Shown here: positions 34,101 through 51,812 of the stretch, piece by piece | Layout of the letters: each line of letters starts with the position of its first letter | Position numbering within the stretch: the stretch's first letter is position 1 | Assembly (NCBI RefSeq): GCF_004217555.1 | Contig: NZ_SHKW01000003.1 | Coordinates: forward strand, 62,001 to 126,000 | Length of the DNA stretch: 64,000 bases | Direction of reading: 5' to 3' | Origin: Edaphobacter modestus | Lineage (GTDB): Bacteria; Acidobacteriota; Terriglobia; Terriglobales; Acidobacteriaceae | Notes under the pieces: model-generated | The model's database searches: none | The model's input: the letters and a program-made list of their open reading frames with translations, nothing else | Told to the model about the DNA's origin: nothing | Program-made: the position numbers and the translations under genes

Positions 34101-34325
34101 ATGACTACCTCGCCACTCGAATTTCCACTCTCGCAAGACGCGCCGAATTCAGGGGCTGTAACCGTGGCGATGGGGATGCCTTCCGGAGCAGAGGCTACTG
34201 GGTACCTGCTCGTGCCCATCCGGAAAGGTGCGGATTTCACCCTTTATCGCGGCCGACAGCGTGGCAACTCATCATCTGTGCTGGTACTGGCACCGATTGG
34301 ACAACCCAGGTTGGAAACGCGCTAG
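34101..34325 (+). pseudogene. Duplicated 5' fragment of the 2112-aa signalling gene
   Basis: The frame reads MTTSPLEFPLSQDAPNSGAV, then ATGYLLVPIRKGADFTLYRG. It matches residues about 33-95 of the protein at 39768-46106 (SSGYVLVPLREGADFTLYRG), and the DNA is closely similar over about 200 bp. Similarity stops near 34300 and the frame ends within the upstream part of the histidine kinase gene. It is a partial copy, not a working gene, though its promoter may drive the kinase. Confidence 0.7.
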
Positions 34326-34338
34326 CGTTGAGGCATCT

Positions 34339-37300
34339 ATGGAATTACAGAGCGATCGCTCCTCTGACATGATGCACGCGGGCGCTATCGCGAAGCCGAT
34401 TTTCCGGCTTCTGATATGTATCGTGGCTCTCTTCGTGGCCGCCGCCGTGCTCGATACAGTTTCTCTTCGTGATCGGGCCTTATCCGCAGTCCTGATTTTT
34501 CTCTTTCTCGTGTTGATTGTCTCCTACCTCTGGGGTTTTCGTTACGCGCTCTTCGTCTCATTACTCGCAGCCCTGGAGTTTGCTTGGTTCCTCCCGCCAG
34601 TCGGCAGTCTTCGGCTTAGTGATTCGCGTGACATCTTTGCACTCGCCGCATTCCTCATCATCGGGATCACTACCAGCCATCTTTCAAACCGCGCCCGCAG
34701 AGAGGCTCTGAGCGCCAAGCGGGCAGAAGACGCCGCCCGCCGAAGTGAAGAGGGGCTTCGTGAGGTCATCGAAACGATGCCGGCGATGGCGTGGAGTGCG
34801 CTGCCCGATGGCTCCAACGCATTCGTAAACAGGCAATGGGCAGAATATACGGGTTTATCGGGAGAACAAACTGTAGATTCAGGTTGGCGGAGTACGGTTC
34901 ACCCCGACGACGCTAGCGAACATATGGAGAAGTGGCACCAATCCTTGGCCACGGGCCAGCCGTTCGAGCATGAGGTGCGTCTGCGACGTACTGCTGATGG
35001 ACAATATCGCTGGTTTTTAGTTCGCGGTATGCCGTTGCGTGATGGGCACGACGAGATACTCAAATGGTATGGAATCGCGACGGATATTGAAGATCGCAAG
35101 CGGGCTGAGGAAGCTCTGCGGGCGAGCGAACACAATCTTAACCTGATCGTCAATACGACCCTTGCACTGTCATGGTCGGCTCGTCCAGACGGCTCGGCAG
35201 ATTTCTTCAACCAGCGCTACCTTGACTTTGTGGGTTTGTCCGCGGAACAGACGCAGGATTGGGGCTGGACGGTTGCGGTTCATCCCGAAGACCTTAACGG
35301 CTTGGCTGGTTCGTGGCAATCCATCATGGCTTCCGGTACGGCAGGAGAGGCCGAAGCGCGACTGCGACGATTCGACGGAGAGTACCGCTGGTTTCTGTTC
35401 CGGGCTAACCCCTTGCGCGATGAGTCCGGCAACATCGTCAAATGGTTCGGGATAAATGCTGACATCACAGAGCGGAAACGTGCCGAAGACTTACTCACTA
35501 GAGAGAAGCGGATTCTTGAGATGGTGGCCAAAGGGGACCCTCTTCCGCAGATACTTGATGGCGTGTGCCGTTTCGTGGAGGCTCAAGCCAGCGGTTTCCT
35601 GGCGTCGATCTTATTAGTTGACGGGAACCGCTTGCGGCATGGCGGTGCTCCCAGCCTTCCAAAGACTTACACTGATGCCATCGATGGAATTGTGATCGGG
35701 CCTTCTACGGGTTCTTGCGGGACAGCCGCATTCCGCGGAGAACAAGTGATCGTGGTGGACATTGCAAACGACTCACTTTGGACGAATTACCGCGAGGCGG
35801 CTCAGCACCATTCTCTACGCGCCTGTTGGTCCACTCCGGTCGTTTCTTCCCAGGGCAAAGTAATCGCAACGTTCGCCATGTATTATCGCGAGCCGCGCAG
35901 CCCGAGCCCGAGAGACCTGGAGACCATCGAACAGATCACTCATCTGGCGGGAGTTGCAATTGAACGAAAGCTGACACAGGAAGCTCTACAGCAAAGTGAA
36001 ACTTATTTAGCCGAAGCGCAGAGGCTGGCTCACACCGGCAGTTGGGCGTGGAACTTGCGTACCGGCACTAGCTTCTGGTCGCAAGAGACCTATCGCATAT
36101 TTGACTACGACCCCGAGAAAGTGACGCCCGCTTGGGATTCCATCCTCGAGAGGGCGCACCCCGAAGATCTACCCGAGATTGAGCGGAGAGCAAAAATAGT
36201 CTACACACAAAACAGGTGGGTAAATCCTGAGCTTGACTTTCGAATCGTGCTTGCAGATGGAACGATAAAGCACCTCCACTCTATCGCTCACCCTGCGATG
36301 GATGAGTCAGGCGAAATCATCAACGTTGTAGGCACAATCATGGATGTGACGGAGCGCCAACGTGCTGAGGAGAAGGTGCGCCGCAGTGAAGAATCTCTTC
36401 TTGAAGCCCAAAGGCTAAGCCATATGGGCAGTTGGAGACATGATGTTGCGTCTGGGACAGTCATTGTGTCGCCTGAGATCTACCGAATATTCGGAGTTCA
36501 ACCCGATGAAGATACTTCGAGCGCTGAATTTTGGTTTAGCAGAAATCATCCTGATGACCAACAGCGCATCCAGGAGCTTTTTGAAAGATGTGAAAGCCAG
36601 AAAACGGAGTACGAATCGGACTACAGGATTGTCCTCAACGATGGAACCATCAAGCACTTGCACGCAATCGGCTATCCTGTTGTGAGCCAATCGGGCGAGC
36701 TCATTGAAATGATGGGAACGATCATGGATGTCACGGAGCACAAGCGTGCGGAAGAGGAGCGTGAGAGGCTGCGCCAGTTAGAGACAGAGCTCGCGCACAT
36801 AAACCGGGTGACCATGCTTGGTGAGCTGGCCAGCTCCCTTGCCCATGAACTCAATCAACCCATTGCTGCTGCAACCACAAGCGCCAATGCCTGCTTGCGA
36901 TGGCTTGCGCACAATCCCCCGGATCTGGAAAGAGCCCGCGCGGCCGCAACGAGAATTGAGAACGACGGAAACCGTGCTGCCGAAATCATCCAACGTCTGC
37001 GGGCGTTCTACAAGACAGGTGCTCCACCGAAGCGTGAGTTGGTCGATCTTAACCAGGTCGCCGAGGAAATACTTGCGCTGTTGCGTGACGAGGCCGACCG
37101 GCACTCAATCTCGCTGCGCACGGAGCTTGCCCCCCATCTGCCGCAAATCATGGCAGATCGCGTGCAACTGCAACAGGTATTGATGAACCTGTTACTGAAT
37201 GGTATTGAGGCCATGACGGACAGGACCGGCGAGCTCATTATCCGGTCCCAGAGCACTGAAGACGGCCTCTTGCTCATCTCCGTTAGCGATACCGGCGTCG

Positions 37301-37488
37301 GCCTTCCCAGCGAAAAACTAGACCGGCTTTTCAGTGCGTTCTATACGACTAAACCTCAAGGCACGGGTATGGGCCTAGCTATTAGCCGTTCCCTTATTGA
37401 AGCACACGGTGGCCGCTTGTGGGCCACCGCTAATGCGGAACGCGGTGCGACATTTCATTTCACCTTGCCTGCGGAGTTGCAGCAATGA
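34339..37488 (+). CDS. Membrane-anchored PAS/GAF sensor histidine kinase
   Basis: The 1049-aa protein starts at the ATG at 34339 with GAGG upstream; the open frame from 34228 overlaps the relic. The order is: four membrane helices of KdpD/DUF4118 type (residues about 18-115), two PAS domains (WSALPDGSNAFVNRQWAEYT; WSARPDGSADFFNQRYLDFV), a GAF domain (GTAAFRGEQVIVVDIAND), two more PAS domains (LAHTGSWAWNLRTG; LSHMGSWRHDVASG), a dimerisation domain with H836 in SLAHELNQPIAA, and a HATPase (LLNGIEAM, DTGVGLP, GTGMGLAISRS). This is the FixL/DctB-type catalytic class. The stop overlaps the start of the FixJ-type regulator, its likely partner. Confidence 0.93.
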   Translation: MELQSDRSSDMMHAGAIAKPIFRLLICIVALFVAAAVLDTVSLRDRALSAVLIFLFLVLIVSYLWGFRYALFVSLLAALEFAWFLPPVGSLRLSDSRDIFALAAFLIIGITTSHLSNRARREALSAKRAEDAARRSEEGLREVIETMPAMAWSALPDGSNAFVNRQWAEYTGLSGEQTVDSGWRSTVHPDDASEHMEKWHQSLATGQPFEHEVRLRRTADGQYRWFLVRGMPLRDGHDEILKWYGIATDIEDRKRAEEALRASEHNLNLIVNTTLALSWSARPDGSADFFNQRYLDFVGLSAEQTQDWGWTVAVHPEDLNGLAGSWQSIMASGTAGEAEARLRRFDGEYRWFLFRANPLRDESGNIVKWFGINADITERKRAEDLLTREKRILEMVAKGDPLPQILDGVCRFVEAQASGFLASILLVDGNRLRHGGAPSLPKTYTDAIDGIVIGPSTGSCGTAAFRGEQVIVVDIANDSLWTNYREAAQHHSLRACWSTPVVSSQGKVIATFAMYYREPRSPSPRDLETIEQITHLAGVAIERKLTQEALQQSETYLAEAQRLAHTGSWAWNLRTGTSFWSQETYRIFDYDPEKVTPAWDSILERAHPEDLPEIERRAKIVYTQNRWVNPELDFRIVLADGTIKHLHSIAHPAMDESGEIINVVGTIMDVTERQRAEEKVRRSEESLLEAQRLSHMGSWRHDVASGTVIVSPEIYRIFGVQPDEDTSSAEFWFSRNHPDDQQRIQELFERCESQKTEYESDYRIVLNDGTIKHLHAIGYPVVSQSGELIEMMGTIMDVTEHKRAEEERERLRQLETELAHINRVTMLGELASSLAHELNQPIAAATTSANACLRWLAHNPPDLERARAAATRIENDGNRAAEIIQRLRAFYKTGAPPKRELVDLNQVAEEILALLRDEADRHSISLRTELAPHLPQIMADRVQLQQVLMNLLLNGIEAMTDRTGELIIRSQSTEDGLLLISVSDTGVGLPSEKLDRLFSAFYTTKPQGTGMGLAISRSLIEAHGGRLWATANAERGATFHFTLPAELQQ

Positions 37489-38111
37489 GCATTGGAGATG
37501 TGCCCACCGTATTCATCGTTGATGATGATGCAGGCGTGCGTGAATCAATTCACGATTTAGTGGAGTCGGTGAGCCTGCACTCTGAGTCCTTCGCCACAGC
37601 GCAAGGGTTCTTGTCGAGCGAGCGGCGAGACGGCCCTAGCTGCCTGGTTTTGGACGTAAGACTTCCCGACGCTAGCGGTTTGGACCTTCAGCAGGAATTG
37701 AGCAGGGCGGGAGTTAGAATTCCCATCATATTTATCACCGGCCACGCGGACATTCCGATGACCGTGAGAGCCATGAAGTCTGGTGCCGTTGAGTTTCTGA
37801 CGAAGCCATTCAGGGAGCAAGACCTCCTCGATGTGATTCATCGTGCACTCAGGCGCGACCGAGGAGTCCGCGAAAAGCAGAAGCAACTAGCTGAACTGCA
37901 GAAACGCTATAGCACGCTGAGCGCTCGCGAGTATGAAGTCATGAGTCTGGTCGTCTCCGGGTTGCTCAACAAGCAGATTGCAGCGGAACTCGGGGCCAGT
38001 GAAACTACAATAAAAATCCACCGCGGGCGCGTGATGCAAAAGATGCAGGCTAAGTCTTTGCCCGACCTGGTCAGAATGGCGGACAAGCTCAAGATGTCAA
38101 CTCACCGCTGA
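37485..38111 (+). CDS. FixJ-family response regulator
   Basis: The 208-aa protein has a receiver (VFIVDDDAGVRESIHDLVES, phospho-acceptor Asp in CLVLDVRLPD, FITGHAD, FLTKPF) and a LuxR-type HTH (LSAREYEVMSLVVSGLLNKQ, TTIKIHRGRVMQKMQAKSL). ATGA overlap with the preceding kinase gene indicates a cognate pair. The FixJ type usually activates transcription on phosphorylation. Confidence 0.94.
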   Translation: MSIGDVPTVFIVDDDAGVRESIHDLVESVSLHSESFATAQGFLSSERRDGPSCLVLDVRLPDASGLDLQQELSRAGVRIPIIFITGHADIPMTVRAMKSGAVEFLTKPFREQDLLDVIHRALRRDRGVREKQKQLAELQKRYSTLSAREYEVMSLVVSGLLNKQIAAELGASETTIKIHRGRVMQKMQAKSLPDLVRMADKLKMSTHR

Positions 38112-38238: not shown

Positions 38239-38616
38239 ATGACGAGCGACCAGAGCATCAAGTTCGTTGCAATCGTAGATGACGATGAATCAGTCCAAAG
38301 CGCACTCCAGGACCTGATGGAAGCGGATGGGCTTTCGGCTCGGTGCTTTGGATCTGCGGAAGAATTCCTCGAATCCGGCCTGCAGCATAGAGCCGCGTGT
38401 CTGATAGTTGATATCCGAATGCCGGGAATGTCAGGCCTGGAACTGCAGGCAAGGCTTAAGGCTGATCGATTTAACACCCCGATCATCTTCATCACCGCAC
38501 ACGGAGATGCGAGAGTGCGAATGCAAGCAATGAGGGAAGGGGCAGCCGAGTTCCTGGTGAAACCGTTCGACGATCAGGTCTTACTCAACAGAGTGCGAGC
38601 CGCACTCGATATGTGA
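38239..38616 (+). CDS. Single-domain response regulator (FixJ-type receiver)
   Basis: The 125-aa protein is a receiver only: FVAIVDDDESVQSALQDLME, CLIVDIRMPGMSGLELQARL, FITAHGD and FLVKPFDDQ. It lacks an HTH, so it probably relays phosphate or competes with the neighbouring FixJ-type regulator. It could be served by the kinase at 34339 or 38778. Confidence 0.9.
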   Translation: MTSDQSIKFVAIVDDDESVQSALQDLMEADGLSARCFGSAEEFLESGLQHRAACLIVDIRMPGMSGLELQARLKADRFNTPIIFITAHGDARVRMQAMREGAAEFLVKPFDDQVLLNRVRAALDM

Positions 38617-38668: not shown

Positions 38669-38812
38669 GTGAACAGTGGCGAAGCATTTGTGTACGCTGA
38701 GCGGAACCAAGCCGAACGCGCATTCGAACAGATACTCGGGATAGCCCTATCTGCTGATAAACCAAAGGATTCGATCTATGAGTCAGTTCATGTCAATCGA
38801 CGAAGACACTAG
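38669..38812 (+). CDS. Candidate 47-aa small protein, GTG start
   Basis: AGGAGG followed by a GTG at 38669 opens a frame beginning MNSGEAFVYAERNQAERAFE and ending NRRRH. It overlaps the start of the next kinase gene by 35 bases. The good ribosome site is the only support; an ATG one base out of frame beside it stops at once. No family recognised. Confidence 0.3.
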   Translation: MNSGEAFVYAERNQAERAFEQILGIALSADKPKDSIYESVHVNRRRH

Positions 38813-39665
38813 CCTCGACACAGAGAGCGTTCTTGCCTCCCCAGGGGGGGCGCAGGGAAGCGGGATGCAACTTAATCGAAGCCGTCTCAATGGGGGGCGC
38901 TGTGAGTCATTGGCAACGTCGATAGCGTCGTTACTGTCACACGACATTCGACATCATCTATCAGCCGTCTATTGCAATGCTGAATTCATGAGCGAACCGG
39001 CAACTCTGGCAACTGACCGTAAACAGCTCTTTGAAGAAGTTAAGCTGGCCATCGAAGATATAACGAAAACGCTCGACTTTATACTCCTCAATGCTAAAAG
39101 CGAGCTCCCATCGCCGGATGTCATAGAGTCATTCAACGATCTCATTGAGCGAACAGTGGCCGCGATTCGGCCCCATCCGCATGCAACAGGAGTAAGTATC
39201 ACCGCTGAAGAGTCTCCGTCGATCTCCGCCCTCTTCAATAAAACAATCGTCAGCAGTGCCGTCTACAATCTGCTGCTAAATGCCTGTTTCGCCGCGCAGC
39301 GGGCAACTGAACCGGGGAAAGTTGAAATCTCACTTCACGATGATCATTCATTCGTTTGCATTCGCGTGAAAGACAATGGTTTGGGCGTTCCTGCTGGTGT
39401 GAGGCAAAATCTGTCTCAACCGTTTGTGACATCGGATAAACAGGGCGGGATCGGCCTCGGCATTACTATCGCAGATTATGTAGCACGTGAGTACGGTGGC
39501 AGCCTGCAGATTGAAAGCAGTTGTTCCGGTTCCACAATATTTGCTTTAAGGCTCGCAAAACCGACACTCCAGATTGTCGAACATGCCCTTGTTCGCCCCC
39601 CAGGAAGAAAAGCCATCAATCGAAGATCGTTTAACTATATCCGTCACAGTCATAGCCTTAAATAG
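38778..39665 (+). CDS. Soluble sensor histidine kinase
   Basis: The 295-aa protein has an H-box-like segment SLLSHDIRHHLSAVYCNAEF near residue 55 and a HATPase domain (AVYNLLLNACFAAQ with the N-box Asn, VKDNGLGVPAGV, GGIGLGITIADYV). It has no membrane segment or recognised sensor domain at its short N-terminus, so it may take its signal from a partner. It lies between the lone receiver and the 2112-aa protein on the same strand. Confidence 0.88.
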   Translation: MSQFMSIDEDTSLDTESVLASPGGAQGSGMQLNRSRLNGGRCESLATSIASLLSHDIRHHLSAVYCNAEFMSEPATLATDRKQLFEEVKLAIEDITKTLDFILLNAKSELPSPDVIESFNDLIERTVAAIRPHPHATGVSITAEESPSISALFNKTIVSSAVYNLLLNACFAAQRATEPGKVEISLHDDHSFVCIRVKDNGLGVPAGVRQNLSQPFVTSDKQGGIGLGITIADYVAREYGGSLQIESSCSGSTIFALRLAKPTLQIVEHALVRPPGRKAINRRSFNYIRHSHSLK

Positions 39666-39767: not shown

Positions 39768-42700
39768 ATGAAAGACGTTGGGACGCCCACCACTGATGAG
39801 CAAGGGGCGATCGAAAACAGAGAGCCTATTTCAATCTTGTCAGGAGACTGCGATCAGGAATCAAACTTGACTACCTCGTCACTTGGAACTCCATTCTTGC
39901 AAGACGTGCCGTATCCGGGGCCTGCAGCCGTGGCGTCGGGGATACTTTCCGGAGCAGAGTCTTCTGGGTACGTGCTCGTGCCCCTCCGGGAAGGTGCGGA
40001 CTTCACCCTTTATCGCGGTCGGCAGCACGGCAACCCATCGCCTGTCCTGGTAGTGGCACTAACCAGGGAGCAACCGTCGCCTCAGAGTCTCAGGCGGTTG
40101 GAGCACGAATACTCACTCGCCGCCGAACTCGATCCCGCTTGGGCAGCCCGGCCTCTGGCTCTCAGTCGTCACGAAGGGCGAACGATTCTCGTACTCAAAG
40201 ATCCTGGCGGTGAACCACTGGATCAGATTCTTCATCTACACCAGGGGCAACCGCTCGATCTGAGACGCGCACTGCGCATCGCCATCGGGTTAACGAGAGC
40301 ACTCGGACAAATCCATCGGCGCGGACTGATACATAAGGACATCAAGCCTGGAAATGTGCTCGTTGACGATGCCGACAGCGTCTGGCTGACCGGCTTTGGA
40401 ATTGCGTCACGGCTGCCGCGTGACCGCCAGGCACCTGCGCCGCCGGAGATCAATGCCGGCACACTGGCCTACATGGCGCCTGAACAGACCGGACGCATGA
40501 ATCGCTCGATTGATACCCCTAGCGATTTCTACTCTTTCGGTGTGACCTTGTACCAGATGCTCACCGGGCGTCTGCCGTTTGCTGCGGCTGATGCCATGGA
40601 ATGGGTCCACTGCCACATCGCTCGCCAACCGGCTCCGCCCGACAGTCTTTGCGATCTCCCGACGCCGGTCTCGGATATCGTCATGCGCCTCATGGCTAAG
40701 ACCGCAGAGGAGCGCTATCAGACCACCGAGGGTCTCGAAGCCGACCTTCGGCATTGCCTGTCTGAGTTGGAAACGCGGGGTCGCATCGATCCATTCCCGT
40801 TGGGCGCCCATGACATCGCGGATCGATTGCTGATCCCAGAGAAACTGTATGGGCGGGAGCGCGAGATAAACGCTATGCTGGAGGCCTTCGATCGGGTCGT
40901 GGCAAACGGCACCCCTGAGCTCGTGCTTGTATCCGGCTATGCCGGCGTCGGCAAATCCTCTGTGGTGCACGAATTGCAAAAAGCGTTGATTGCACCGCAA
41001 GGACTTTTCGCGGCGGGCAAGTTTGATCAATATAAGCGCGACATACCGTATGAAACATTGGCCCAAGCCTTCCAGACCCTAATCCGTCAGATCCTCACCA
41101 AGAAGGAAGCAGAGGTGGATCAATGGCGAGAAGCTCTGGCACAGGCGGTGGGACCGAATGGTCAACTTATCATTGATCTCGTCCCCGAGTTGGAGTTCAT
41201 CCTTGGGAAACAGCCGCCCATTCCCGACCTTCCACCGCAGGATGCCCAAAACCGCTTCCAGAGGGTGTTCCGGAGTTTCCTGAATGCGTTCGCCACACGG
41301 GAGCACCCGCTTGTGCTGTTCGTTGACGATTTGCAATGGTTAGATGAGGCGACGCTCGACCTCTTCGTCCATCTGTTCAGTCACTCTGAAGTCAAGTACC
41401 TTTTGCTGATCGGAGCTTACCGAGACAACGAGGTCGACGCCTCTCATCAGCTGTGTCAAACCCTTGAGGCGATCCGTGACACCGATGCGAAGATGCTGGA
41501 GATCGTGCTTACCCCGCTCGAACTTGACGATGTGAACCGCCTCGTCTCCGAGGCGCTGCATTGCGCGCGGCTTACCGCGCATCCTCTGGCCGAACTCGTA
41601 CACCAGAAGACCGGTGGGAATCCCTTCTTTGTCATTCAGTTTCTGACTGTATTAGTCGATGAAGAGTTGCTCTCGCTCGACCAGGTTGCGCGGGTCTGGC
41701 AGTGGGACATGAATCGCATCCGCTCCAAGGGCTACACCGACAGCGTGGTAGACCTCATGGTCGGAAGGATAAAGCGGCTGTCTGCCGAAGCTCAGAAAGC
41801 GCTGAAAGAACTCGCTTGCCTGGGCAGTGTCGTCGAGGTTTCGACCCTGGCTCTGGTTCACGAGGGAGCAGAGGAGACGATGCATGCGGCGCTGTCTGAA
41901 GCCGTGGGTGCAGGGCTCATCTATCCCGACGGCAGCTCGTATAGCTTTCTGCACGACCGAATCCAGCAGGCCGCTTATAGCCTCATTCCCCAGGAAGATT
42001 GTGCAGGAGTCCACTTGACGGTAGGCCGTGCTCTCCTGGCAAAGATGGCGACGGAAAAACTCGCCGAACATCTGTTCGATGTCGCGAACCACTTCAATCG
42101 CGGCGCTGCACTGCTGGTGCAGGACGAAGAAAGAATACGGGTAGCAACGATCAATCTACGTGCCGGGCGAAAGGCAAACGCATCGGCGGCCTATGCGTCA
42201 GCGAGGGCCCATTTTTCGGATGGTGCGGCATTACTCGACGAAGGGGCTTGGGTCAGCCACTACGAATTGATATCTAGTCTGTCGCTCGAATGGGCGCGGG
42301 CTGAGTTGCTGACCGGTAACTCAGAAAAATGCGGGCAATTAGTTGAGGATTTGTTGCAGCGCCGACTATCGAGGGTTGACAGGGCTGCGGCCTACCAACT
42401 CAAGGTCCAGTCCCATTTTCTAAAGGCAGAATACAGTGAAGCTGTAGCCAGCGCCCTCACCGGCCTAGGCACTTTCGGCATTGACATACCGGCCCATCCA
42501 ACCTGGGAGGATGTTCAGGCTGCATTTGAAGCAGTTTGGCAAAGCCTCGATGGACGCCCGATCGAAAGTCTGATTGATCTATCGCTGATGTCCGATCCGG
42601 AACTGCAAGCCGGCATACAGGTCTTATCGGCGCTCACGCCTTCCGCCTTCTTTACGGACCTCCGTTTGTGGTGCTTGCTGGTGAGCCGTATGGTGAAAAT

Positions 42701-45700
42701 CGGGATAGAGCACGGCACGAGCGGTGCTTCCGCGCACGCCTTCGCCGATTGGAGCTTTGTGCTTGGACATGTCTCTTGCCGTTTCGGCGATGCGGACCGT
42801 TTCGCCAAACTCGCCTGTAACCTGGTCGAGAAACACGGATTTATCGCCTATCGTACGAAGGTTCACAGCACCAAGGGAGCCATCGGTCTGTTTACGCAGC
42901 CGATCAAGACTGCGCTCGATTCCATGCGGACGGCAATTCGCACCGGGGTTGAGACTGGCGATCTGAGCTTCGCTTGCTTCGGCCAGCAGCAATGTATAGC
43001 CGCTCTCCTGTTGCGGAACGATCCGCTCGATGTGGTTTGGGGCGAGTCGGAGAAGGCCTTGCGTTTCGTCTGTGAAGCCAAATATAGGGATTTTACAGAC
43101 ATTGTCGAGGGTCAACGGCGCTTCATCGCAACCATGCAGGGGCGGACCGCGAGCTTTTCCACGTTTAACGACGCACAGTTCGATGAGAAGACGTATGAGG
43201 CACAGCTTACCGGGAAGCGACTGCCTATGATGATCTGCTGGTACTGGATCTTCAAACTGAAGGCTCGATTTTTGTCAGGCGACTATCCGGAGGCTCTGGC
43301 GGCCGCAGACAAGGCGCAATCCCTACTTGCTGCGTCTACCGGTCTCATCCAGTTGCTCGACTACTTTTATTATTTCGCGCTAACGGTGGCCGCATGCTAT
43401 GAGAATGCCTCCGCCGATCAGCAGCAAGTGTGGCATGACCTGCTTTTGACGCATGTTGAACAACTGCGCGCATGGGCCGAAATCAATCCATCGACGTTCG
43501 CCGACAAGCACGCGCTGGTGTCGGCTGAGATCGGCCGCCTCGAACGGCGGGACTCCGACGCAATGCGTCTCTATGAGCAAGCAATCACCCTGGCGCGTGA
43601 GAATGGCTTCATCCAGAATGAGGCGCTGGCCTATGAGATCGCCGCGCGATTCTATGCGGAGCGCGGCGTAGAGACAGTCGCTCACGCATTTCTCCGCAGC
43701 GCCCGGAACTCCTATGACGGTTGGGGTGCACATGGCAAGGTCGGACAGTTGGACGCTCAGCATCCTCACTTACGCGAGGAGCGGGCTCGAGGCGCCCTTG
43801 CGACTACAACCGGCACGCAGGTCGAGCAGTTGGATGTCGAAGCTGTATTCAAAGCATCGAAAGCATTGTCGAGCGAGATTTTGCTGCCCAGGCTGATCGA
43901 GAAACTTATGCGACTCGCGGTTGAGCATGCAGGCGCCGAGCGGGGTCTCCTCATCCTCCTCCGAGACGATGAACCACAGATCGAGGCGGAGGCTGTCACC
44001 GGCCACGAAAGGGCTGCGGTCACAGTTCGGCGGATGGCCGTCACTTCATCTGATCTCCCCCAATCCGCGCTTCATTATGTCATTCGGACTCGGGAGCGTG
44101 TGTTGCTTGATGATGCTTCGGTCGAGAACTTGTATTCGCAGGACGAGTATCTGCGCAGGAAGCACCCCAGGTCCGTGCTATGCGTGCCCATAGTCAAGCA
44201 ATCAAAATTCGTCGGCGTACTCTACCTGGAGAATAATTTGACGCCACGCGCGTTCACGTCGGACCGGGTCGCGGTGTTGGAGTTGCTGGCTTCGCAGGCC
44301 GCGATATCGCTCGAAAATGCTGGCCTCTATTCGGATCTGCAACGCGGCGAAACTTTCCTGGCTGAAGCGCAGAGCCTAAGCCACACCGGCAGCTTCGGCT
44401 GGAGTGTTGCCAACGGAGAAATCTACTGGTCGGTGGAAACCTACAATATCTTTGAATACGATCGAAAAGCAAGGCCTACGTTGGAGATGGGAGTGCGACG
44501 AACTCATCCCGACGACAGAGAGCTCGTGCAACAGGCTCGCGACCGGGCGTCTGAGGCAAGAGCCGACTTTGAGCTCGAACACCGTTTGCTGATGCCGAAC
44601 GGTTCAGTCAAGCACCTACACGTTTCCGCTCGCGCGTTGACAAACTCATCTGGGGATCTTGAATTTGTGGGTGCCGTGACGGATGTGACCGCAGCAAAAC
44701 AGGCAGAGGAAAAGCGACGGCAAGATGAACACGAGCTCCGCCGCATTACCGATGCCATACCGCAATTGATCGTCGTCTTGAATCCCGATGGCCGGACGGT
44801 CTATGTCAATCGAGTGGCACTTGAATATACCGGTTTGTCGATTGAGGAGGTACAGGCGGATACTTTCCGCGATCGCGTCATTCATCCCGAGGACCTTGAG
44901 AGGTTCCGAGAAGTTCGGCAAAGCGAGCTGCCAAAGGGTGTTCCGTTTGAGACCGAACGGCAAATTCTCGGAAAAGACGGCAAGTATCGTTGGTATCTCC
45001 TTCGTTATAACCCTTTCCGCGACGAGCAGGGGCGGGTCGTGCGCTGGTATGCAACGGGAACAGACATCGAGGATCGCAAAGTGGCTGAGCAACGCCTCCA
45101 AAACGAGAACGTTTCGCTGCGCGAAGACGTCGATCGCTTCTCAATGTTTGAGGAGATTGTCGGTTCTTGCGAACCCATGCGTCAGGTGTTGAAGCAAGTG
45201 ACAAAAGTTGCATCGTCGGCTTCGACCGTGCTCATCTTGGGCGAAACCGGAACGGGTAAAGAACTGATTGCTCGCGCACTTCATCGGCGATCGAACCGCG
45301 CGTCCAGAGCCTTCGTCCGCGTGAACTGCGCCGCCATCCCCCAATCGCTGATTGCTTCTGAGCTTTTCGGGCACGAGAAAGGCGCCTTCACGGGCGCTCT
45401 GCAGAGACGTATAGGGAGGTTTGAATCCGCTGACGGAGGGACACTCTTCCTTGATGAGATCGGCGATCTCCCCATGGAAACCCAGATCGCACTCCTGCGT
45501 GTGCTTCAGGAGCGTGAGTTTGAGCGAGTAGGAAGCAATCATCCGATCTCAGTAGACGTTCGGCTAATCGCGGCCACAAATGGAGATCTGCCTACTGCCG
45601 TCGCTGCCGGAACCTTCCGCCAGGATCTTTTCTACAGACTCAATGTTGTTCCGATTGTCATTCCACCGCTCCGCGAGCGAGCGGAAGATATTCCCCTGCT

Positions 45701-46106
45701 CGTCGAATATTTCGTTGGGCGCTACGCCAAAGTGGCAGGCAAAACGATCCGACATATCTGTAAGCAAACGCTGGAGCGGTTAACGGTCTATGACTGGCCG
45801 GGAAATATCCGTGAATTACAGAACGTCGTGGAACGTGCGGTCATTCTCAGTGAAACGGACACGTTCTTCGTTGATGAGAGCTGGCTGAAACTCGAATCCA
45901 CACAGTCCCGGCAGCCGCGCGAAGGACTTTCGACGTTGTCAGATTGTGAAGTGGAGATCATCGAAGCTGCTCTGGCTGAGTGCCAAGGTCGCATCGCCGG
46001 ACCTTCAGGCGCGGCTGCCAAGCTCGGGATTCCCCGGTCGACGCTCGAATCGAAAATCAGGCGTTTGGGGATTAGCAAGTACGAGTACAAACGCCAAACC
46101 TCCTAA
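39768..46106 (+). CDS. Giant fusion: pseudokinase–STAND-like ATPase–GAF–PAS–PAS–sigma-54 AAA+–Fis HTH
   Basis: The 2112-aa protein begins like trifunctional Ser/Thr-kinase/ATPase/sensor-kinase proteins. A protein-kinase fold lies at about 60-330 (HKDIKPGNVLV near 190). The DFG motif reads TGFGIAS, and no VAIK-type Lys is seen (PSPVLVVALTR), so catalysis is doubtful. An AAA_16/STAND-like ATPase follows (Walker A SGYAGVGKSS near 388, Walker B LVLFVDDLQWLDE near 517), then a long helical region. A GAF domain is at about 1370-1525 and two PAS domains at about 1525-1770. The usual C-terminal histidine kinase is replaced by a sigma-54 activator: [13 protein letters not shown] near 1823, GAFTGA near 1871, [10 protein letters not shown], and a Fis-type HTH from about 2057. 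One polypeptide could therefore carry signal input through to transcription. Confidence 0.9.
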   Translation: MKDVGTPTTDEQGAIENREPISILSGDCDQESNLTTSSLGTPFLQDVPYPGPAAVASGILSGAESSGYVLVPLREGADFTLYRGRQHGNPSPVLVVALTREQPSPQSLRRLEHEYSLAAELDPAWAARPLALSRHEGRTILVLKDPGGEPLDQILHLHQGQPLDLRRALRIAIGLTRALGQIHRRGLIHKDIKPGNVLVDDADSVWLTGFGIASRLPRDRQAPAPPEINAGTLAYMAPEQTGRMNRSIDTPSDFYSFGVTLYQMLTGRLPFAAADAMEWVHCHIARQPAPPDSLCDLPTPVSDIVMRLMAKTAEERYQTTEGLEADLRHCLSELETRGRIDPFPLGAHDIADRLLIPEKLYGREREINAMLEAFDRVVANGTPELVLVSGYAGVGKSSVVHELQKALIAPQGLFAAGKFDQYKRDIPYETLAQAFQTLIRQILTKKEAEVDQWREALAQAVGPNGQLIIDLVPELEFILGKQPPIPDLPPQDAQNRFQRVFRSFLNAFATREHPLVLFVDDLQWLDEATLDLFVHLFSHSEVKYLLLIGAYRDNEVDASHQLCQTLEAIRDTDAKMLEIVLTPLELDDVNRLVSEALHCARLTAHPLAELVHQKTGGNPFFVIQFLTVLVDEELLSLDQVARVWQWDMNRIRSKGYTDSVVDLMVGRIKRLSAEAQKALKELACLGSVVEVSTLALVHEGAEETMHAALSEAVGAGLIYPDGSSYSFLHDRIQQAAYSLIPQEDCAGVHLTVGRALLAKMATEKLAEHLFDVANHFNRGAALLVQDEERIRVATINLRAGRKANASAAYASARAHFSDGAALLDEGAWVSHYELISSLSLEWARAELLTGNSEKCGQLVEDLLQRRLSRVDRAAAYQLKVQSHFLKAEYSEAVASALTGLGTFGIDIPAHPTWEDVQAAFEAVWQSLDGRPIESLIDLSLMSDPELQAGIQVLSALTPSAFFTDLRLWCLLVSRMVKIGIEHGTSGASAHAFADWSFVLGHVSCRFGDADRFAKLACNLVEKHGFIAYRTKVHSTKGAIGLFTQPIKTALDSMRTAIRTGVETGDLSFACFGQQQCIAALLLRNDPLDVVWGESEKALRFVCEAKYRDFTDIVEGQRRFIATMQGRTASFSTFNDAQFDEKTYEAQLTGKRLPMMICWYWIFKLKARFLSGDYPEALAAADKAQSLLAASTGLIQLLDYFYYFALTVAACYENASADQQQVWHDLLLTHVEQLRAWAEINPSTFADKHALVSAEIGRLERRDSDAMRLYEQAITLARENGFIQNEALAYEIAARFYAERGVETVAHAFLRSARNSYDGWGAHGKVGQLDAQHPHLREERARGALATTTGTQVEQLDVEAVFKASKALSSEILLPRLIEKLMRLAVEHAGAERGLLILLRDDEPQIEAEAVTGHERAAVTVRRMAVTSSDLPQSALHYVIRTRERVLLDDASVENLYSQDEYLRRKHPRSVLCVPIVKQSKFVGVLYLENNLTPRAFTSDRVAVLELLASQAAISLENAGLYSDLQRGETFLAEAQSLSHTGSFGWSVANGEIYWSVETYNIFEYDRKARPTLEMGVRRTHPDDRELVQQARDRASEARADFELEHRLLMPNGSVKHLHVSARALTNSSGDLEFVGAVTDVTAAKQAEEKRRQDEHELRRITDAIPQLIVVLNPDGRTVYVNRVALEYTGLSIEEVQADTFRDRVIHPEDLERFREVRQSELPKGVPFETERQILGKDGKYRWYLLRYNPFRDEQGRVVRWYATGTDIEDRKVAEQRLQNENVSLREDVDRFSMFEEIVGSCEPMRQVLKQVTKVASSASTVLILGETGTGKELIARALHRRSNRASRAFVRVNCAAIPQSLIASELFGHEKGAFTGALQRRIGRFESADGGTLFLDEIGDLPMETQIALLRVLQEREFERVGSNHPISVDVRLIAATNGDLPTAVAAGTFRQDLFYRLNVVPIVIPPLRERAEDIPLLVEYFVGRYAKVAGKTIRHICKQTLERLTVYDWPGNIRELQNVVERAVILSETDTFFVDESWLKLESTQSRQPREGLSTLSDCEVEIIEAALAECQGRIAGPSGAAAKLGIPRSTLESKIRRLGISKYEYKRQTS

Positions 46107-46530: not shown

Positions 46531-46943
46531 GACCACGCACGACGTGTTGGAGTTCGCCTTCGCGGAAATTGCCTGCTCTCCGAACGCTTCGGCAATGTGC
46601 AGTCATCAACAGCCGGTCCCGGGCTCGGCAGGCGATTCGACTGGTTGAGATCTCGTCATTTGTCGAAAATGCACCACTGAAAATCCGAGGTCATCCATTT
46701 TGCTTCAGTGACTTACGTATGGCACTCGCCATGCATATTATCCAGATACCGCAGGAACGTGGATTCTCAAATTCAGCAACCGATGATGAGTTGCCAAAGA
46801 AGCACAACGAATGGCCCTGTATCTTCCAATCCATCCTACTGGCGCATTCACTGAGATTGGCGCTGTTTATGCGACCGCTTTCCTTAGCGGTCCATGATCT
46901 TGTGTCGGTATCTTGCGATTGCGCTGAAAGGAATGGCCCACCA
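46531..46943. other. Leader region of STAS gene with weak sigma-54-like site
   Basis: There is no convincing gene. A plus frame from 46569 runs into the STAS gene, but its upstream 125 codons look random. A -24/-12-like element, TGGCGC-N5-ATGC, lies at 46858-46872, 72 bp before the ATG. Confidence 0.35.
46858..46872 (+). promoter_or_regulatory. Weak sigma-54-like promoter
   Basis: TGGCGC, five bases, then ATGC: the GG and GC doublets have the correct spacing, with two departures from TGGCAC-N5-TTGC. It lies upstream of the STAS gene at 46944. Confidence 0.3.
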
Positions 46944-47231
46944 ATGTTGAGGATTGAAAAAGAGTTGGACGGACACACTACAACCTTGCGGCTCATTGGC
47001 CGAATTCAATCGGCCGATATCGGCAGCATACAGGCTCAAATGGATGATGACAGTGTTCACGTCCTCTTTGACCTGGGTGAGGTCACTCTAGTGAACGTCG
47101 AGGTTATACGATTCCTGAGCGATTGCGAGGACGAGGGGGTTGTATTGATTCACTGTCCTCCCTATGTCCGCGAGTGGATTCTTCGCGAGCGAGATGAACG
47201 GTCAGGGCCGCGAATTCCGGATGGCACCTGA
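46944..47231 (+). CDS. STAS-like domain protein
   Basis: The ATG at 46944 has AAAGGA upstream. The 95-aa protein (MLRIEKELDGHTTTLRLIGR, then VHVLFDLGEVTLVNVEVIRF and GVVLIHCPPYVREWI) has the anti-sigma-antagonist-like alternating fold. The usual phospho-Ser position is not obvious. Such proteins may regulate by protein-protein contact. It is placed between two sigma-54 activator genes. Confidence 0.72.
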   Translation: MLRIEKELDGHTTTLRLIGRIQSADIGSIQAQMDDDSVHVLFDLGEVTLVNVEVIRFLSDCEDEGVVLIHCPPYVREWILRERDERSGPRIPDGT

Positions 47232-47273
47232 TTCGTTTGCGTGGGTTCAGACAATTGAACACGCCTAATCTTT

Positions 47274-47578: not shown

Positions 47579-48655
47579 ATGCACCATCGGTGGAAATCTG
47601 AGGTGGTACTTATGGCAACCTCGTTAACTTTCAGATCCCGTGACTCGGGCATGGGAGAGCGCAGCCTGGAACAGATCATAGGGAGCAGCGCCGCACTGGG
47701 CGCTGTGCTTGCGAAAGTCGATCTCGTGGCTCCGACCGACTCCACCGTGCTGGTCCTGGGAGAGACGGGCACGGGTAAAGAGTTGGTTGCCCGCGCCGTT
47801 CATAATCTCAGCCGCCGTGCCGGACGCCCATTTGTAAAGGTGAATTGTGCGGCCATTCCCTTCGACCTGCTGGAAAGCGAGCTCTTTGGTCACGAGAGAG
47901 GAGCCTTCACCGGAGCTATTGCGCAGAAGATTGGCCGCTTCGAAATGGCAGATACGGGCAGCCTGTTTCTGGACGAAATCGGGGACATACCCCTGGCGTT
48001 GCAGTCGAAGCTGCTCCGGGTTCTGCAAGAACAGGAGTTCGAGCGGCTGGGGAGCGGCCGAACTCATCGGATCAACGTTCGCCTCATTGCGGCCACACAT
48101 CGCGATTTGGCCGGCATGATTGCACGGAGCGAATTCCGAAGCGACCTGTACTACCGGCTGAATGTCTTTCCCGTCGTGCTACCGCCATTACGCAACCGAA
48201 AGAGCGATATCCCAGAGCTGGTTTCTTATTTTGTTCGGATTCTTTCTCAACGCATGGGCAAGCCGATTCAGCAAGTACCACCGGAAACAATGGCAGCGTT
48301 TGCTTCCTATACCTGGCCGGGGAACGTACGCGAACTACAGAACCTGGTCGAACGTGCCGTGATCCTTTCCTGCGATGGAGTGCTTCCTAACCCACTACCG
48401 ATAAACCATCAAGACACGGTAGCTGTAATTTGCAACTCGACTAACTTGAAGGAGGTCGACCGGGCGCTAATTTTGCAAGCATTGGAAGCGGCGGACTGGG
48501 TGATAGGCGGCCCAGTCGGTGCAGCCGCTAAGCTGGGACTCAATCGTACGACGTTAGCTTACAAAATGAATAAACTTGGACTTGTCCGCCCCATCCGAAT
48601 GCGCAGCGCAGTACCGCCAGAGGGAATCGACCACGCTGAGTCAACAGCAACCTAA
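47579..48655 (+). CDS. Sigma-54-dependent transcriptional activator, Fis family
   Basis: The 358-aa protein consists of an AAA+ domain ([56 protein letters not shown]-finger region [18 protein letters not shown]) and a C-terminal HTH ([34 protein letters not shown]). No receiver, GAF or PAS input domain is present, so it should be controlled in trans, as in PspF-like activators. The start could also be the ATG at 47612. It lies 326 bp upstream of the efflux operon, whose leader has sigma-54 promoter matches. Confidence 0.93.
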
Positions 48656-48696: not shown

Positions 48697-48893
48697 GATA
48701 CAAGCATGGTTGTTCCTGAATCGTACCTCGTCTTTACTTCGATCTGATCTTCCATTCTTTGACAACGCTGCGGCCGCGAACCGGCAATCGGCATTCTGTC
48801 TTGGCGCCAAAGATTGGACGAAAACCAAAGCGCTCTCACGCTGGTCATTTCTCAAGTCATTTGAATTCCGTCATTTCCAATGTGCTTGTGCCT

Positions 48894-48908
48894 TGGCAAG
48901 GAGATTGC
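48894..48908 (+). promoter_or_regulatory. Sigma-54 promoter candidate, proximal
   Basis: TGGCAA-GGAGA-TTGC followed by T fits the -24/-12 consensus with correct spacing. The expected transcript start near 48920 gives a leader of about 60 nt before the tolC-like ATG at 48982. Confidence 0.6.
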
Positions 48909-48981
48909 TGTTGTAAGTAGCCGAGCTCATCTTTTAGACCGGCACTTTCGTGGCATGAGAAGAGGAGGAAGGAAGCAAAGC

Positions 48982-50436
48982 ATGTGCGACCATAAAATGC
49001 AGCGTGAGTACCCGGGTGCGATAAAGCCGCGGAAGTTTGTTATTTCGCCTCCTCTATTGCTCTCGCTAATCATGAGCCTCATGGCCTCAGCGGTGTCGGG
49101 ACAGGGGGTACAAGTGCCTCTAACATCGCCTTCTGTCTCCGTAACATCGATCCAGACCGGCTCGAAAAGCCAACCTGATATCGCTCCTAATCAGGACACG
49201 GTTTCGCTGACGATGCATGAGGCCGTGAAGATTGCACTTAAGCAGAACCCTCGCTTGTTGGCTGCTCGAATCGAAGCTCTCGAGGTTAAACAGAGCGCGA
49301 AAGTTGCAAGGTCCGTGTACTTGCCTAAGGCTACGTTGGGGCTTGAAGAGCAAATGCAGCGACTCAATCTTGCGACAAACTTCGGTCAGGAATCTGCTCC
49401 TTACTCGGTTGGTCCATATAGTAATGTGCAGCTCGGGGCTACCTTCGATGTGCCAATCATTGCGGTGTCGGCGTGGAGCAGCTACCAGGCGGAAAAGCGC
49501 AGAGCAGAATCTTCGCAGGAGCAGGCCGCAGATGTTCAGGAATCGATTGCGAGCATCGTCGTCGCCCAGTATCTGTCATTGTTGCGGTCGAAGGCGACGG
49601 AACAGGCCGTTCAGAGTCGTATCGATCTGGCGACTGTCCTGCTGCGCCTTGCCAACGACCAGTTGGCACAGGGTACCGGAACCACCACAGATGCGCTGCG
49701 AGCAAACGTCGAGCTACACGTAGAGAAAGAAAATCTTGTTCGGGCGCAATCTCACACGAGAGCTTACGGCTATGGCCTCGCACGGGTTCTGGGGTTGAAG
49801 GAGAACCAGCAGGTACTTGCGGCAGAAAGTCTCACTGCAGCCGACGAACAGGTTCCTGATGAACAGCAGTCGCTCGCCGAAGCATTCAACACACGCCCGG
49901 ATCTTCTGGCTGCTGAAGCCCAACATCAGGCTGCAAAGTATGACAGCAAAGCGGCGGCGGAACAACGATTGCCCGAGTTTCACTTCGATGGCTATTGGGC
50001 TCAAAGTGGACGAAACCCCGCAGGAGCTCTTCCGATATACATCTATCAGGGAGAGATGAGGCTTCCGATCTTTACCGGCGGCAGAATTACCGCTGAATCC
50101 AAACGTGCAAGATTGGCTGCTGATCGTTCCCAACAAACCGTTACGGAGCGCCAGGACGTAATAACGCAGGAGGTCCGTACTGCATTGTCGACGCTCGATG
50201 CTGCACGTCAGGAGTTGCAGCTCTCGACAGAGGCATTGAGGCTTTCAACGCGTGAACTAACGGAGTCGCGCGATCGCTTTGCGGCGGGAATCACAAACAA
50301 TATTGAAGTCATCACGGCCCAAAACTCACTTGCTCAGGCGACAGATAGCCAGATAGGAGCGATGTTCGACTTGCAACAAGCAAAGGCAGATTTGTCCCAT
50401 TCACGCGGGCGCATCGCTGAGGAATATGGAAATTAA
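48982..50436 (+). CDS. TolC-family outer-membrane efflux protein
   Basis: The 484-aa protein from the ATG at 48982 follows a GGAGGAAGGA stretch and has a signal-like segment (PPLLLSLIMSLMASAVSGQG). The OEP repeats show LTMHEAVKIALKQNPRLLAA and DEQQSLAEAFNTRPDLLAAE, and the C-terminal helix has FAAGITNNIEVITAQNSLAQ. It forms the trimeric outer-membrane duct for the adaptor and MFS pump that follow 11 and about 50 nt downstream. Confidence 0.92.
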   Translation: MCDHKMQREYPGAIKPRKFVISPPLLLSLIMSLMASAVSGQGVQVPLTSPSVSVTSIQTGSKSQPDIAPNQDTVSLTMHEAVKIALKQNPRLLAARIEALEVKQSAKVARSVYLPKATLGLEEQMQRLNLATNFGQESAPYSVGPYSNVQLGATFDVPIIAVSAWSSYQAEKRRAESSQEQAADVQESIASIVVAQYLSLLRSKATEQAVQSRIDLATVLLRLANDQLAQGTGTTTDALRANVELHVEKENLVRAQSHTRAYGYGLARVLGLKENQQVLAAESLTAADEQVPDEQQSLAEAFNTRPDLLAAEAQHQAAKYDSKAAAEQRLPEFHFDGYWAQSGRNPAGALPIYIYQGEMRLPIFTGGRITAESKRARLAADRSQQTVTERQDVITQEVRTALSTLDAARQELQLSTEALRLSTRELTESRDRFAAGITNNIEVITAQNSLAQATDSQIGAMFDLQQAKADLSHSRGRIAEEYGN

Positions 50437-50447
50437 GGAGTGCCCAC

Positions 50448-51761
50448 ATGATTGAGACCAACACGCAATCCGGTTCCCCAGTAGCGTCACCGGCATCGAG
50501 TGAGCAATCAACCCTGGTAGTTCGTGCTCGTAATGCGGCAGCGTGGGCCGCCAGGAATAAGCTTTACGTCCTTCTCGCGGTCATTGTCCTCGCCGTCGGT
50601 CTTTTTTGGGTTTTCACCGAGGACCTGAATCCCGGCACGGATGATGCGCAGGTCGATGGCCACTCGATTGTTATCTCCCCCCGTGTGCCCGGCTATGTCC
50701 AGAAGATGTTGATCGACGACAACACACGCGTGAAACAGGGCGACCTGATGATCCAGCTTGATCCTGCCGACTATCAGGCGAAAGTTGATGAGGCCCGCGC
50801 GGCTTTACAAGTTGCGGAGGCCCGAGCTGCAGCCCTCAAAATCACGGTTCCGTTCACGATAGGAACGACTAGCAGTGCGACGGTTGCAGCGTCAGCGCAA
50901 GTCGAAGCGGAACGTTCGGAGCTTGCTAGCGCAGAGGCGACTTATCAACGTCTCTCGACCTCTGAGCTCAAGTTTGCTGAGGCCAACATCGCTGCAAGAA
51001 AGGCCGAGTTGGATAAGGCTGACTCCGACGTGAAGAGAACGCGGACACTCGCTGAACTATCCGAAATCTCCCGGCAGCAATTCGATGCTTATCTGGCGAC
51101 CGATGAGGTGGCACGTAACGAATGGCTGGCGGCGCAGCAGAAGCTAGACGCTACGAAACGCGAGGCCGAGGCAGCTAAGGCCGCCCAGGATACAGCGCAT
51201 GCACGAATAGCCCAGGGCGAGGCCGAGGTGCGACAGAGCAAGGCACAGCAGTTGGAGTCCGGAGTAAGAAAAGCCGATTACCAGTCCGCGCTTGCAGATG
51301 TGGAGCAAGCGAAGGCGACCTTGAACCAGGCGCTGTTGAACCTCAGCTATACCCAACTACGCGCTCCCATGTACGCGACTGTAACGAAGCGCACTGTCGA
51401 ACAAGGTCAGCAGTTTGCCGTTGGACAGGCAATGTTCGATCTCGTGCCACTCGATGAGATTTGGATAACGGCGAATCTGAAAGAGACGCAGATGGCGCAC
51501 GTTCGTCCCGGAGAAAAGGTCAAGATTGACGTCGACACCTACGGGCACAAAACCTTCTACGGCGTAGTGGACTCGATTGCCAGCTCAACCGGTTCAAGGC
51601 AAGCCCTGCTTCCTCCGGAAAACGCCACGGGCAACTTTGTAAAAGTAGTGCAGCGTATTCCTGTAAAAATTCTCGTCCATCAGGCTTCTAACGACGGTGA
51701 CGTGCTCCGTCCTGGGATGAACGTCGAGGTCAAAGTTAAAACCAGTTGGTGGATGTTTTAA
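50448..51761 (+). CDS. HlyD/EmrA-family membrane fusion protein
   Basis: The 437-aa protein has one N-terminal membrane helix (KLYVLLAVIVLAVGLFWVFT). The lipoyl-like halves follow (TDDAQVDGHSIVISPRVPGYV; LRAPMYATVTKRTVEQGQQF) around a long alpha-hairpin rich in Ala, Glu and Lys. The GTDDAQV motif is typical of EmrA adaptors. AAGGAG precedes the ATG. It links the MFS pump to the TolC-like protein. Confidence 0.93.
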   Translation: MIETNTQSGSPVASPASSEQSTLVVRARNAAAWAARNKLYVLLAVIVLAVGLFWVFTEDLNPGTDDAQVDGHSIVISPRVPGYVQKMLIDDNTRVKQGDLMIQLDPADYQAKVDEARAALQVAEARAAALKITVPFTIGTTSSATVAASAQVEAERSELASAEATYQRLSTSELKFAEANIAARKAELDKADSDVKRTRTLAELSEISRQQFDAYLATDEVARNEWLAAQQKLDATKREAEAAKAAQDTAHARIAQGEAEVRQSKAQQLESGVRKADYQSALADVEQAKATLNQALLNLSYTQLRAPMYATVTKRTVEQGQQFAVGQAMFDLVPLDEIWITANLKETQMAHVRPGEKVKIDVDTYGHKTFYGVVDSIASSTGSRQALLPPENATGNFVKVVQRIPVKILVHQASNDGDVLRPGMNVEVKVKTSWWMF

Positions 51762-51812
51762 GCTCGCTCGACGCAGCCATGCGTCTTGTCGCCGAATAAG
51801 AAGAGGAATTTG

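What the first reader, a model, noticed from the sequence alone, without database searches (positions are those of the whole stretch)
39768..46106. Pseudokinase–STAND-like ATPase–GAF–PAS protein that ends in a sigma-54 activator instead of a histidine kinase
The familiar architecture beginning with a Ser/Thr-kinase fold and an AAA_16 ATPase normally ends in a histidine kinase. Here the last 330 residues are a complete sigma-54 AAA+ domain (Walker A, GAFTGA, Walker B) with a Fis-type HTH. The kinase part has TGFG in place of DFG and no visible VAIK Lys, so it is probably a binding module. Input, NTP-driven switch and promoter remodelling would then sit in one 2112-aa chain, with two different AAA-type motors.
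Basis: partly seen in the sequence, partly recalled or inferred. Interest (0 to 1): 0.85.

Follow-up and report, generated by a model that had tools for sequence, protein, structure and literature searches.

The report
Giant sensor with swapped output domain
A very large soil-bacterium sensor protein, from a family that usually ends in a histidine kinase, here ends in a machine that switches genes on directly, and relatives show that this swap of endings has happened repeatedly.

Summary
One uninterrupted 2112-codon frame encodes degenerate Ser/Thr kinase, AAA_16/TPR module, GAF, two PAS, complete sigma-54 AAA+ domain and Fis-type HTH. The junction is not an artefact: co-linear relatives occur in other assemblies, two of the same genus. 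The AAA_16/TPR model matches STAND ATPases.

It is not unique. Of 114 relatives with the same front, 13 end in sigma-54 and 80 in histidine kinase; the 13 lie in the window's phylum or named Acidobacteriota. Two deeper relatives end in SpoIIE. On a front-half tree the ending changes at least 8 times, and one origin is rejected. Fused sigma-54 domains interleave with stand-alone regulators. The window gene is mosaic: its TPR resembles L120, L011 and L002, its output two congeneric proteins with another TPR. Response-regulator genes lie near 30 of 63 histidine-kinase forms, 1 of 12 sigma-54 forms. -24/-12-like sites precede efflux operons beside both giant genes of this contig.

Verdict: recurrent conversion of a two-component STAND sensor into a direct sigma-54 activator; new variant of a known kind. 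Function is inferred.

The parts
39768..46106 (+). giant receptor-activator gene, 2112 aa (alternative TTG start at 39867, 2079 aa)
39948..40787 (+). protein-kinase fold: HKD catalytic loop kept, TGFG for DFG, Thr at the VAIK Lys column
   Evidence: AlphaFold model pLDDT 86.4, best PDB match PknB 1mru, TM 0.77
40842..41411 (+). AAA_16 NTPase (Walker A GYAGVGKS; LFVDD as Walker B)
   Evidence: together with the adjoining helical region matches STAND ATPases 6mfv, Apaf-1 and MalT
41628..43817 (+). helical repeat (TPR-type) region, approximate limits
   Evidence: TPR_CHK1 hit at 1156-1283, 26.8 bits, just under its cut-off of 27; helices in the model of residues 341-920
43890..44312 (+). GAF domain
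44343..44732 (+). first PAS domain (approximate limits)
   Evidence: PAS_3 has two stretches; limits by alignment
44799..45056 (+). second PAS domain
   Evidence: 69-85% identical in four sigma-54-ended relatives compared
45156..45656 (+). sigma-54 activator AAA+ domain with Walker A, GAFTGA, Walker B
   Evidence: ZraR 1ojl E 3e-90
45672..45896 (+). AAA+ lid
   Evidence: AAA_lid_14
45936..46064 (+). Fis-type HTH
   Evidence: HTH_8
46944..47231 (+). small ORF of 95 codons (STAS-like by eye only); segment 46573-47261 also lies beside the G900 and G865 giant genes, 77-78% DNA identity
   Evidence: no Pfam match over cut-off
47579..48655 (+). small solo sigma-54 AAA+ regulator without a recognised input domain
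48894..48909 (+). -24/-12 sigma-54 promoter-like site TGGCAAGGAGATTGCT (1 mismatch), the best in the window
48880..53465 (+). tripartite efflux operon: outer-membrane efflux protein, HlyD-type adaptor, MFS pump; presumed target
34228..38111 (+). separate DUF4118-PAS-GAF histidine kinase and LuxR-type response regulator, overlapping by 4 bases
38778..39665 (+). small HATPase_c protein 102 bases upstream of the giant gene

Best explanation
A STAND-type receptor whose usual histidine-kinase output has been replaced by a sigma-54 activator. Shown by sequence: the domain order, intact sigma-54 motifs, an RpoN gene in the same genome, and repeated exchange of the output module among relatives. Inferred: ligand or partner binding to the pseudokinase, TPR, GAF and PAS parts, with nucleotide exchange in the STAND module, releases or assembles the C-terminal AAA+ ring. 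The ring binds an enhancer through its HTH and remodels RNA polymerase-sigma-54 at the promoter upstream of the neighbouring efflux operon, possibly together with the small solo sigma-54 regulator. The phosphorelay (histidine kinase and LuxR/FixJ-type regulator) used by the other relatives is thus bypassed.
For: Complete sigma-54 AAA+, lid and HTH. RpoN in the own genome. Front-half folds: PknB-like kinase, STAND/Apaf-1/MalT-like. Endings HK, sigma-54 and SpoIIE on the same front. The ending changes at least 8 times on supported branches; single origin rejected, p-AU 9e-12. Fused sigma-54 domains are not one clade, p-AU 7e-6. Sharp identity loss after GAF or first PAS in close HK/sigma-54 pairs. 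Mosaic of the window gene against G900, G865, L002, L120 and L011. Regulator genes near 30 of 63 HK-ended and 1 of 12 sigma-54-ended genes, Fisher p 0.012. -24/-12 sites: the only site with at most 1 mismatch in 64 kb lies before the window's efflux operon, and one of six perfect sites in the genome lies before the paralogue's operon.
Against: No experiment. Among the 13 sigma-54-ended loci, sites with at most 1 mismatch were found at only 2, one of the further ones inside a pump gene (L100:9439); in the two congeneric loci G900 and G865 such a site precedes a hydrolase-like gene, not efflux. A looser pattern gave 15 matches in the window against 9.9 expected (4 of 100 shuffles reach 15) and 4 against 2.9 in L099. 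Efflux genes near sigma-54-ended genes are not enriched over HK-ended ones (3 of 12 against 9 of 63, p 0.39), although the marker proteins came from the sigma-54-ended loci. The HK-ended set is mostly Pseudomonadota (57 of 80), so the regulator contrast is mixed with phylogeny. The solo regulator next door could be the real activator of the operon. No convincing shared enhancer dyad with G900/G865 (one 2-mismatch pair, with G865 only).
Confidence: 0.62

Rival explanations
1. The neighbouring efflux operon is activated by the solo sigma-54 regulator 47579-48655, itself controlled through the PAS histidine kinase and response regulator at 34228-38111. The giant protein regulates other, distant genes and is only a neighbour.
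For: In G108 a HK-ended giant gene, two receiver genes, a solo sigma-54 regulator and an efflux operon stand together; solo sigma-54 regulators also stand beside receiver genes in L206 and L207. The G900 and G865 orthologues have 77-81% identical HTH but other neighbours.
Against: A giant gene and a solo regulator stand within about 1.6 kb of each other at three loci (window, L099, L020), and a perfect -24/-12 match lies before the paralogue's operon, where no response regulator was found within 6 kb of the giant gene.
Confidence: 0.25
2. The kinase domain is still a working Ser/Thr kinase and phosphorylation is the switch.
For: HxD aspartate and DxKPxN are intact in the window protein. Deep relatives keep more: L105 has VIIK, HKD and DFS, L196 has VILK, HKD and DFG.
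Against: In this protein the DFG Asp is Gly and the VAIK Lys column is Thr; Gly at DFG in 10 of 12 sigma-54-ended and 79 of 80 HK-ended relatives aligned, Lys at VAIK in 1 of 12 and 1 of 80 (L106 was too short to be included).
Confidence: 0.08
3. Assembly join or frameshift that fused two genes.
For: None found; read coverage was not available.
Against: Co-linear homologues in other assemblies, two congeneric ones at 94% over the AAA+ domain.
Confidence: 0.01

Closest known systems
'Trifunctional serine/threonine-protein kinase/ATP-binding protein/sensor histidine kinase' family, including cyanobacterial dual kinases cbSTKIII such as HstK
   Same: Kinase fold, AAA_16, TPR, GAF and often PAS in the same order. 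The annotation name was seen cut off after 'ATP-binding'; the rest of it is recalled. Cyanobacterial STK-GAF-HisKA proteins and domain shuffling among them are described in PMC2176072 (passages read); that these belong to the same family was not tested here.
   Different: C-terminal histidine kinase instead of sigma-54 AAA+ and HTH; cyanobacterial STKs as a whole keep the DFG Asp in 97.2%.
Fungal CHK1/Mak2/Mak3 histidine kinases
   Same: Ser/Thr-kinase and GAF parts (passages of PMC5383687); Pfam TPR_CHK1 hit just under its cut-off.
   Different: Histidine kinase plus receiver output; eukaryotic.
Bacterial enhancer-binding proteins with GAF or PAS input (NifA, NorR, FhlA, DmpR types)
   Same: Output domains, GAFTGA and HTH; ligand-type input (table seen in PMC7175178 passages).
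   Different: No STAND ATPase or kinase fold in any group of that table. Among the 25 of 59 NCBIfam matches shown, no curated cut-off is reached.
Stand-alone PAS-sigma-54 regulators of the same phylum
   Same: 59-67% identity over the C-terminal part for the best seven of the own genome, L004-L010; fused and stand-alone forms interleave.
   Different: No kinase-STAND-TPR front.
MalT and other STAND transcription activators
   Same: STAND ATPase plus helical repeats controlling a DNA-binding output; fold match 8bob.
   Different: MalT ends in a LuxR-type HTH without a second ATPase (recalled).

Membership tests
Sigma-54 enhancer-binding proteins | Sigma54_activat AAA+ domain with intact GAFTGA, Walker A and Walker B | tested here: met
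Sigma-54 enhancer-binding proteins | C-terminal Fis-type HTH | tested here: met
   HTH_8
Sigma-54 enhancer-binding proteins | sigma-54 present in the genome | tested here: met
   PF04552 hit over cut-off at C1:5383832
Sigma-54 enhancer-binding proteins | ATP-dependent activation at a -24/-12 promoter | not testable with these tools
   only sequence matches to the consensus
Trifunctional kinase/ATPase/histidine kinase family | kinase-AAA_16-TPR-GAF front | tested here: met
Trifunctional kinase/ATPase/histidine kinase family | C-terminal histidine kinase | tested here: not met
STAND NTPases | STAND-type ATPase module followed by helical repeats | tested here: met
   fold matches 6mfv, 1z6t, 3sfz, 8bob with TM 0.41-0.52 and rmsd 8.6-12.6; Pfam nSTAND1 E 4e-5, under its cut-off
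STAND NTPases | nucleotide-switched oligomerisation | not testable with these tools
   none
Active Hanks-type Ser/Thr kinases | VAIK Lys, HRD Asp, DFG Asp | tested here: not met
   Lys column Thr, DFG Asp replaced by Gly; HRD Asp kept

The most novel reading that the evidence does not exclude
The STAND module works as an inducible oligomerisation wheel, as in Apaf-1 or MalT, that templates assembly of the sigma-54 AAA+ ring: a promoter-remodelling motor nucleated by an apoptosome-like platform. The C-terminal output is a portable cassette exchanged among histidine kinase, SpoIIE phosphatase and sigma-54 forms, so a lineage rewires the same sensor from phosphorelay to direct transcription in one recombination step.
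Probability: 0.3. Interest if true: 0.8.

Novelty: new variant of a known kind. Interest (0 to 1): 0.6.

Why it matters
It gives a natural, repeated experiment in which one class of giant receptor is coupled to three different outputs, and so tests how modular bacterial signalling proteins are and what the linker at the PAS/output boundary must provide. It also puts a STAND ATPase and a sigma-54 AAA+ ATPase in one chain, which makes the question whether one ring can template another directly testable with purified protein.

Tried and rejected
Assembly artefact: rejected on the strength of co-linear homologues. Rarity: rejected, the order recurs in the phylum. Kinase degeneration as a trait of the sigma-54 form: rejected, it is shared with the HK-ended forms. 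Efflux association as a trait of the sigma-54 form: not significant (L002 is not counted there because its HlyD and pump genes lie beyond 6 kb). Shared enhancer dyad: none convincing. Reading the ending from match ranges alone: abandoned, because proteins with one PAS split into two matches.

Limits. The plasmid search listed 30 of 213 records; none of the 30 reached past query residue 1851. The front-half tree used 57 of 114 proteins: all 13 sigma-54-ended, 44 of 80 HK-ended (9 picked as Acidobacteriota or same-phylum, then every second of the rest); the 21 contig-cut or otherwise ended ones were left out. One search counted fragments of fused genes as stand-alone; one search mends this for all but L138 and L107, which may be cut fused genes and were dropped. 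Each surveyed genome had at most its best 2 to 4 candidates scored. Neighbour tests left out 17 of 80 HK-ended and 1 of 13 sigma-54-ended genes with under 6 kb of flank. Classes and phyla other than those were not surveyed by whole genome. Trees are 'quick' ones; the front-half tree used a single-matrix model. Gene names at L100, L099, L165 and L205 are by eye or by similarity to window proteins, not by Pfam.
Full report
What is there. The frame 39768..46106 (+) is 2112 codons without a stop. Pfam finds Pkinase, AAA_16, GAF, PAS twice, Sigma54_activat, AAA_lid_14 and HTH_8 in that order. Walker A, GAFTGA, Walker B and the lid motif WPGNIRELQN are intact, and the C-terminal part matches ZraR and NifA structures by sequence. 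The kinase part aligns with PknB, with Gly at the DFG Asp; its predicted model (pLDDT 86.4) matches PknB best (TM 0.77). The model of residues 341-920 (pLDDT 86.8) has a STAND-TPR protein, Apaf-1 and MalT among its eight best matches, so 'STAND-like' is supported by fold, though with moderate scores (TM 0.41-0.52, rmsd 8.6-12.6) over a flexible multi-domain chain.

Not an artefact. The paralogue L002 on the same contig has the same order at 63% identity. Other assemblies hold further co-linear genes. Two genomes of the same genus, G900 and G865, carry a 2077-aa form with 94% identity over the AAA+ domain and 81% and 77% over the HTH. GC by codon position shows no break along the frame. The true start may be TTG at 39867, where the G900 protein begins with ATG.

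How common. Own genome: two sigma-54-ended giants, on contig 3, and one HK-ended, on contig 1. With a strict cut-off, 8 of 150 genomes of the same family and 6 of 297 of the phylum hold a relative; with a looser cut-off and the front part alone, 16 of 297; the own genome is counted in each. In two other groups, centred on Mesorhizobium (class) and on a verrucomicrobial MAG (phylum), 2 of 289 and 2 of 145 hold one, the centre included in both. Of the two non-centre ones, G863 is HK-ended and G678 is cut by its contig end. Over loci L001-L133, 114 distinct proteins have the front: 80 HK-ended, 13 sigma-54-ended, 14 contig- or locus-cut, 7 other. Among the 16 genomes, sigma-54 endings were seen in G000 (two), G173, G196, G261, G370 and G421; SpoIIE endings by Pfam in G238 and G335 and by similar tails in G304 and G264; HK endings in G196 (second gene), G154 and G206; G325, G232, G215 and G333 were cut, broken or unclear. 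The window's assembly is unnamed. That its phylum is Acidobacteriota is inferred: the named sigma-54-ended relatives are Bryobacterales, 'Acidobacteria gp2' and Ca. Sulfotelmatobacter.

Repeated swap. On a tree of 57 front halves (13 sigma-54, 44 HK) the ending changes at least 8 times on supported branches; holding the 13 together costs 2437 log units, p-AU 9e-12. Supported sister pairs differ in ending: L076/L019, L079/L097, L012/L055. Identity in three close pairs falls to about 20% after the GAF (L076/L019: 69, 38, 19% per 100 residues) or after the first PAS (L079/L097: 59 then 20%; L110/L011: 57 then 25%). Trees of the sigma-54 domain mix fused and stand-alone forms: at least 7 changes forced by supported branches, 8 minimum changes after two doubtful rows were dropped, single origin p-AU 7e-6. 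The window protein is mosaic: its TPR region is 54-68% identical to L002, L120 and the HK-ended L011 but 33-48% to G900, whereas its HTH is 50-53% identical to L002 and L120 but 81% to G900. The kinase part does not follow this split (76% to G900, 74% to L011, 70% to L120), so more than one exchange may be involved. The G900 TPR resembles that of the HK-ended L003 (52-60%). I read this as output cassettes moving between receptors.

Neighbourhood and mechanism. Within 6 kb, LuxR-type regulators lie near 30 of 63 HK-ended genes and 1 of 12 sigma-54-ended ones (p 0.012); the one is the window, where the regulator overlaps a separate histidine kinase. This fits loss of the phosphorelay step, with the caveat that 57 of the 80 HK-ended proteins are from Pseudomonadota. 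In G108 a HK-ended giant gene overlaps a regulator gene and is followed by a second receiver, a solo sigma-54 regulator and a divergent efflux operon. In the window the sigma-54 giant is followed by a solo sigma-54 regulator and an efflux operon. A solo regulator also follows the giant gene at L099 and, after one other ORF, at L020.

Promoter-like sites. With the full consensus TGGCACG-N4-TTGCW, the only site with at most one mismatch in 64 kb (0.56 expected from shuffles) is at 48894, about 90 bases before the likely efflux start near 49000; a looser pattern gives 15 sites against 9.9 expected. Beside the paralogue, a perfect site, one of six in 7.4 Mb (reversed-pattern control: one), lies about 90 bases before a TPP-enzyme-like and efflux-like gene set. 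In L165 a 2-mismatch site, which is at chance level, and an RND-like efflux set follow the giant gene. At the remaining sigma-54-ended loci there was no site with at most one mismatch. In G900 and G865 a conserved 1-mismatch site follows the giant gene, before a hydrolase-like gene. Efflux genes are not enriched over the HK-ended set. The consensus is recalled, not taken from a call.

Known work. Domain shuffling and dual Ser/Thr-His kinases are described for cyanobacteria (PMC2176072, passages; also PMC1262709, passages), and the fungal CHK1 type has Ser/Thr-kinase and GAF parts with a histidine kinase (PMC5383687, passages). A review of sigma-54 activators lists receiver, PRD, PAS, V4R, ACT and GAF inputs (PMC7175178, passages); one survey mentions about 136 architectures (PMC3162934, passages), so this order may be counted somewhere without comment. 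The main text of PMC12316311 has no word beginning 'acidobacteri'. The listings of searches show no paper on this fusion; supplements were not readable and several listings were capped.

Verdict. A real, recurrent, clade-centred variant: a STAND receptor with exchangeable outputs, here a sigma-54 activator. The signal, the target and the ring-assembly step remain inference.

Noticed in passing
L099:3965-9954 and L076:8063-13454: A YcaC-like hydrolase, an amidohydrolase and an alginate-export-like porin (names by eye) lie beside sigma-54-ended giants in two genomes at 79-81% identity; amidohydrolase and YcaC relatives (45-58%) also lie in the loci of HK-ended giants L021 and L082. A possible shared target with either output.
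   Followed up: partly
46573-47261: Leader plus 95-codon ORF conserved (77-78% DNA) next to the giant gene in G900 and G865, but on its other side; no Pfam family over cut-off.
   Followed up: partly
L196:3810-9176 and L200:3262-8427: The same front ends in a SpoIIE-type phosphatase domain, and in L196 the kinase motifs VILK, HKD and DFG are present.
   Followed up: partly
38266-38603: Receiver-like stretch between the response regulator and the small HATPase protein, matching receiver genes beside solo sigma-54 regulators in L206 and L207.
   Followed up: no
L015 (G072), L107 (G325): Family members with broken frames: L015 is split in the AAA_16 part; L107 ends in or after the TPR part, with a sigma-54 frame on the same strand further on.
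   Followed up: no
L213:16943, L214:16559: A second sigma-54-like site on the other side of the giant gene in the congeneric genomes (2 and 1 mismatches), close in sequence to the downstream one.
   Followed up: no
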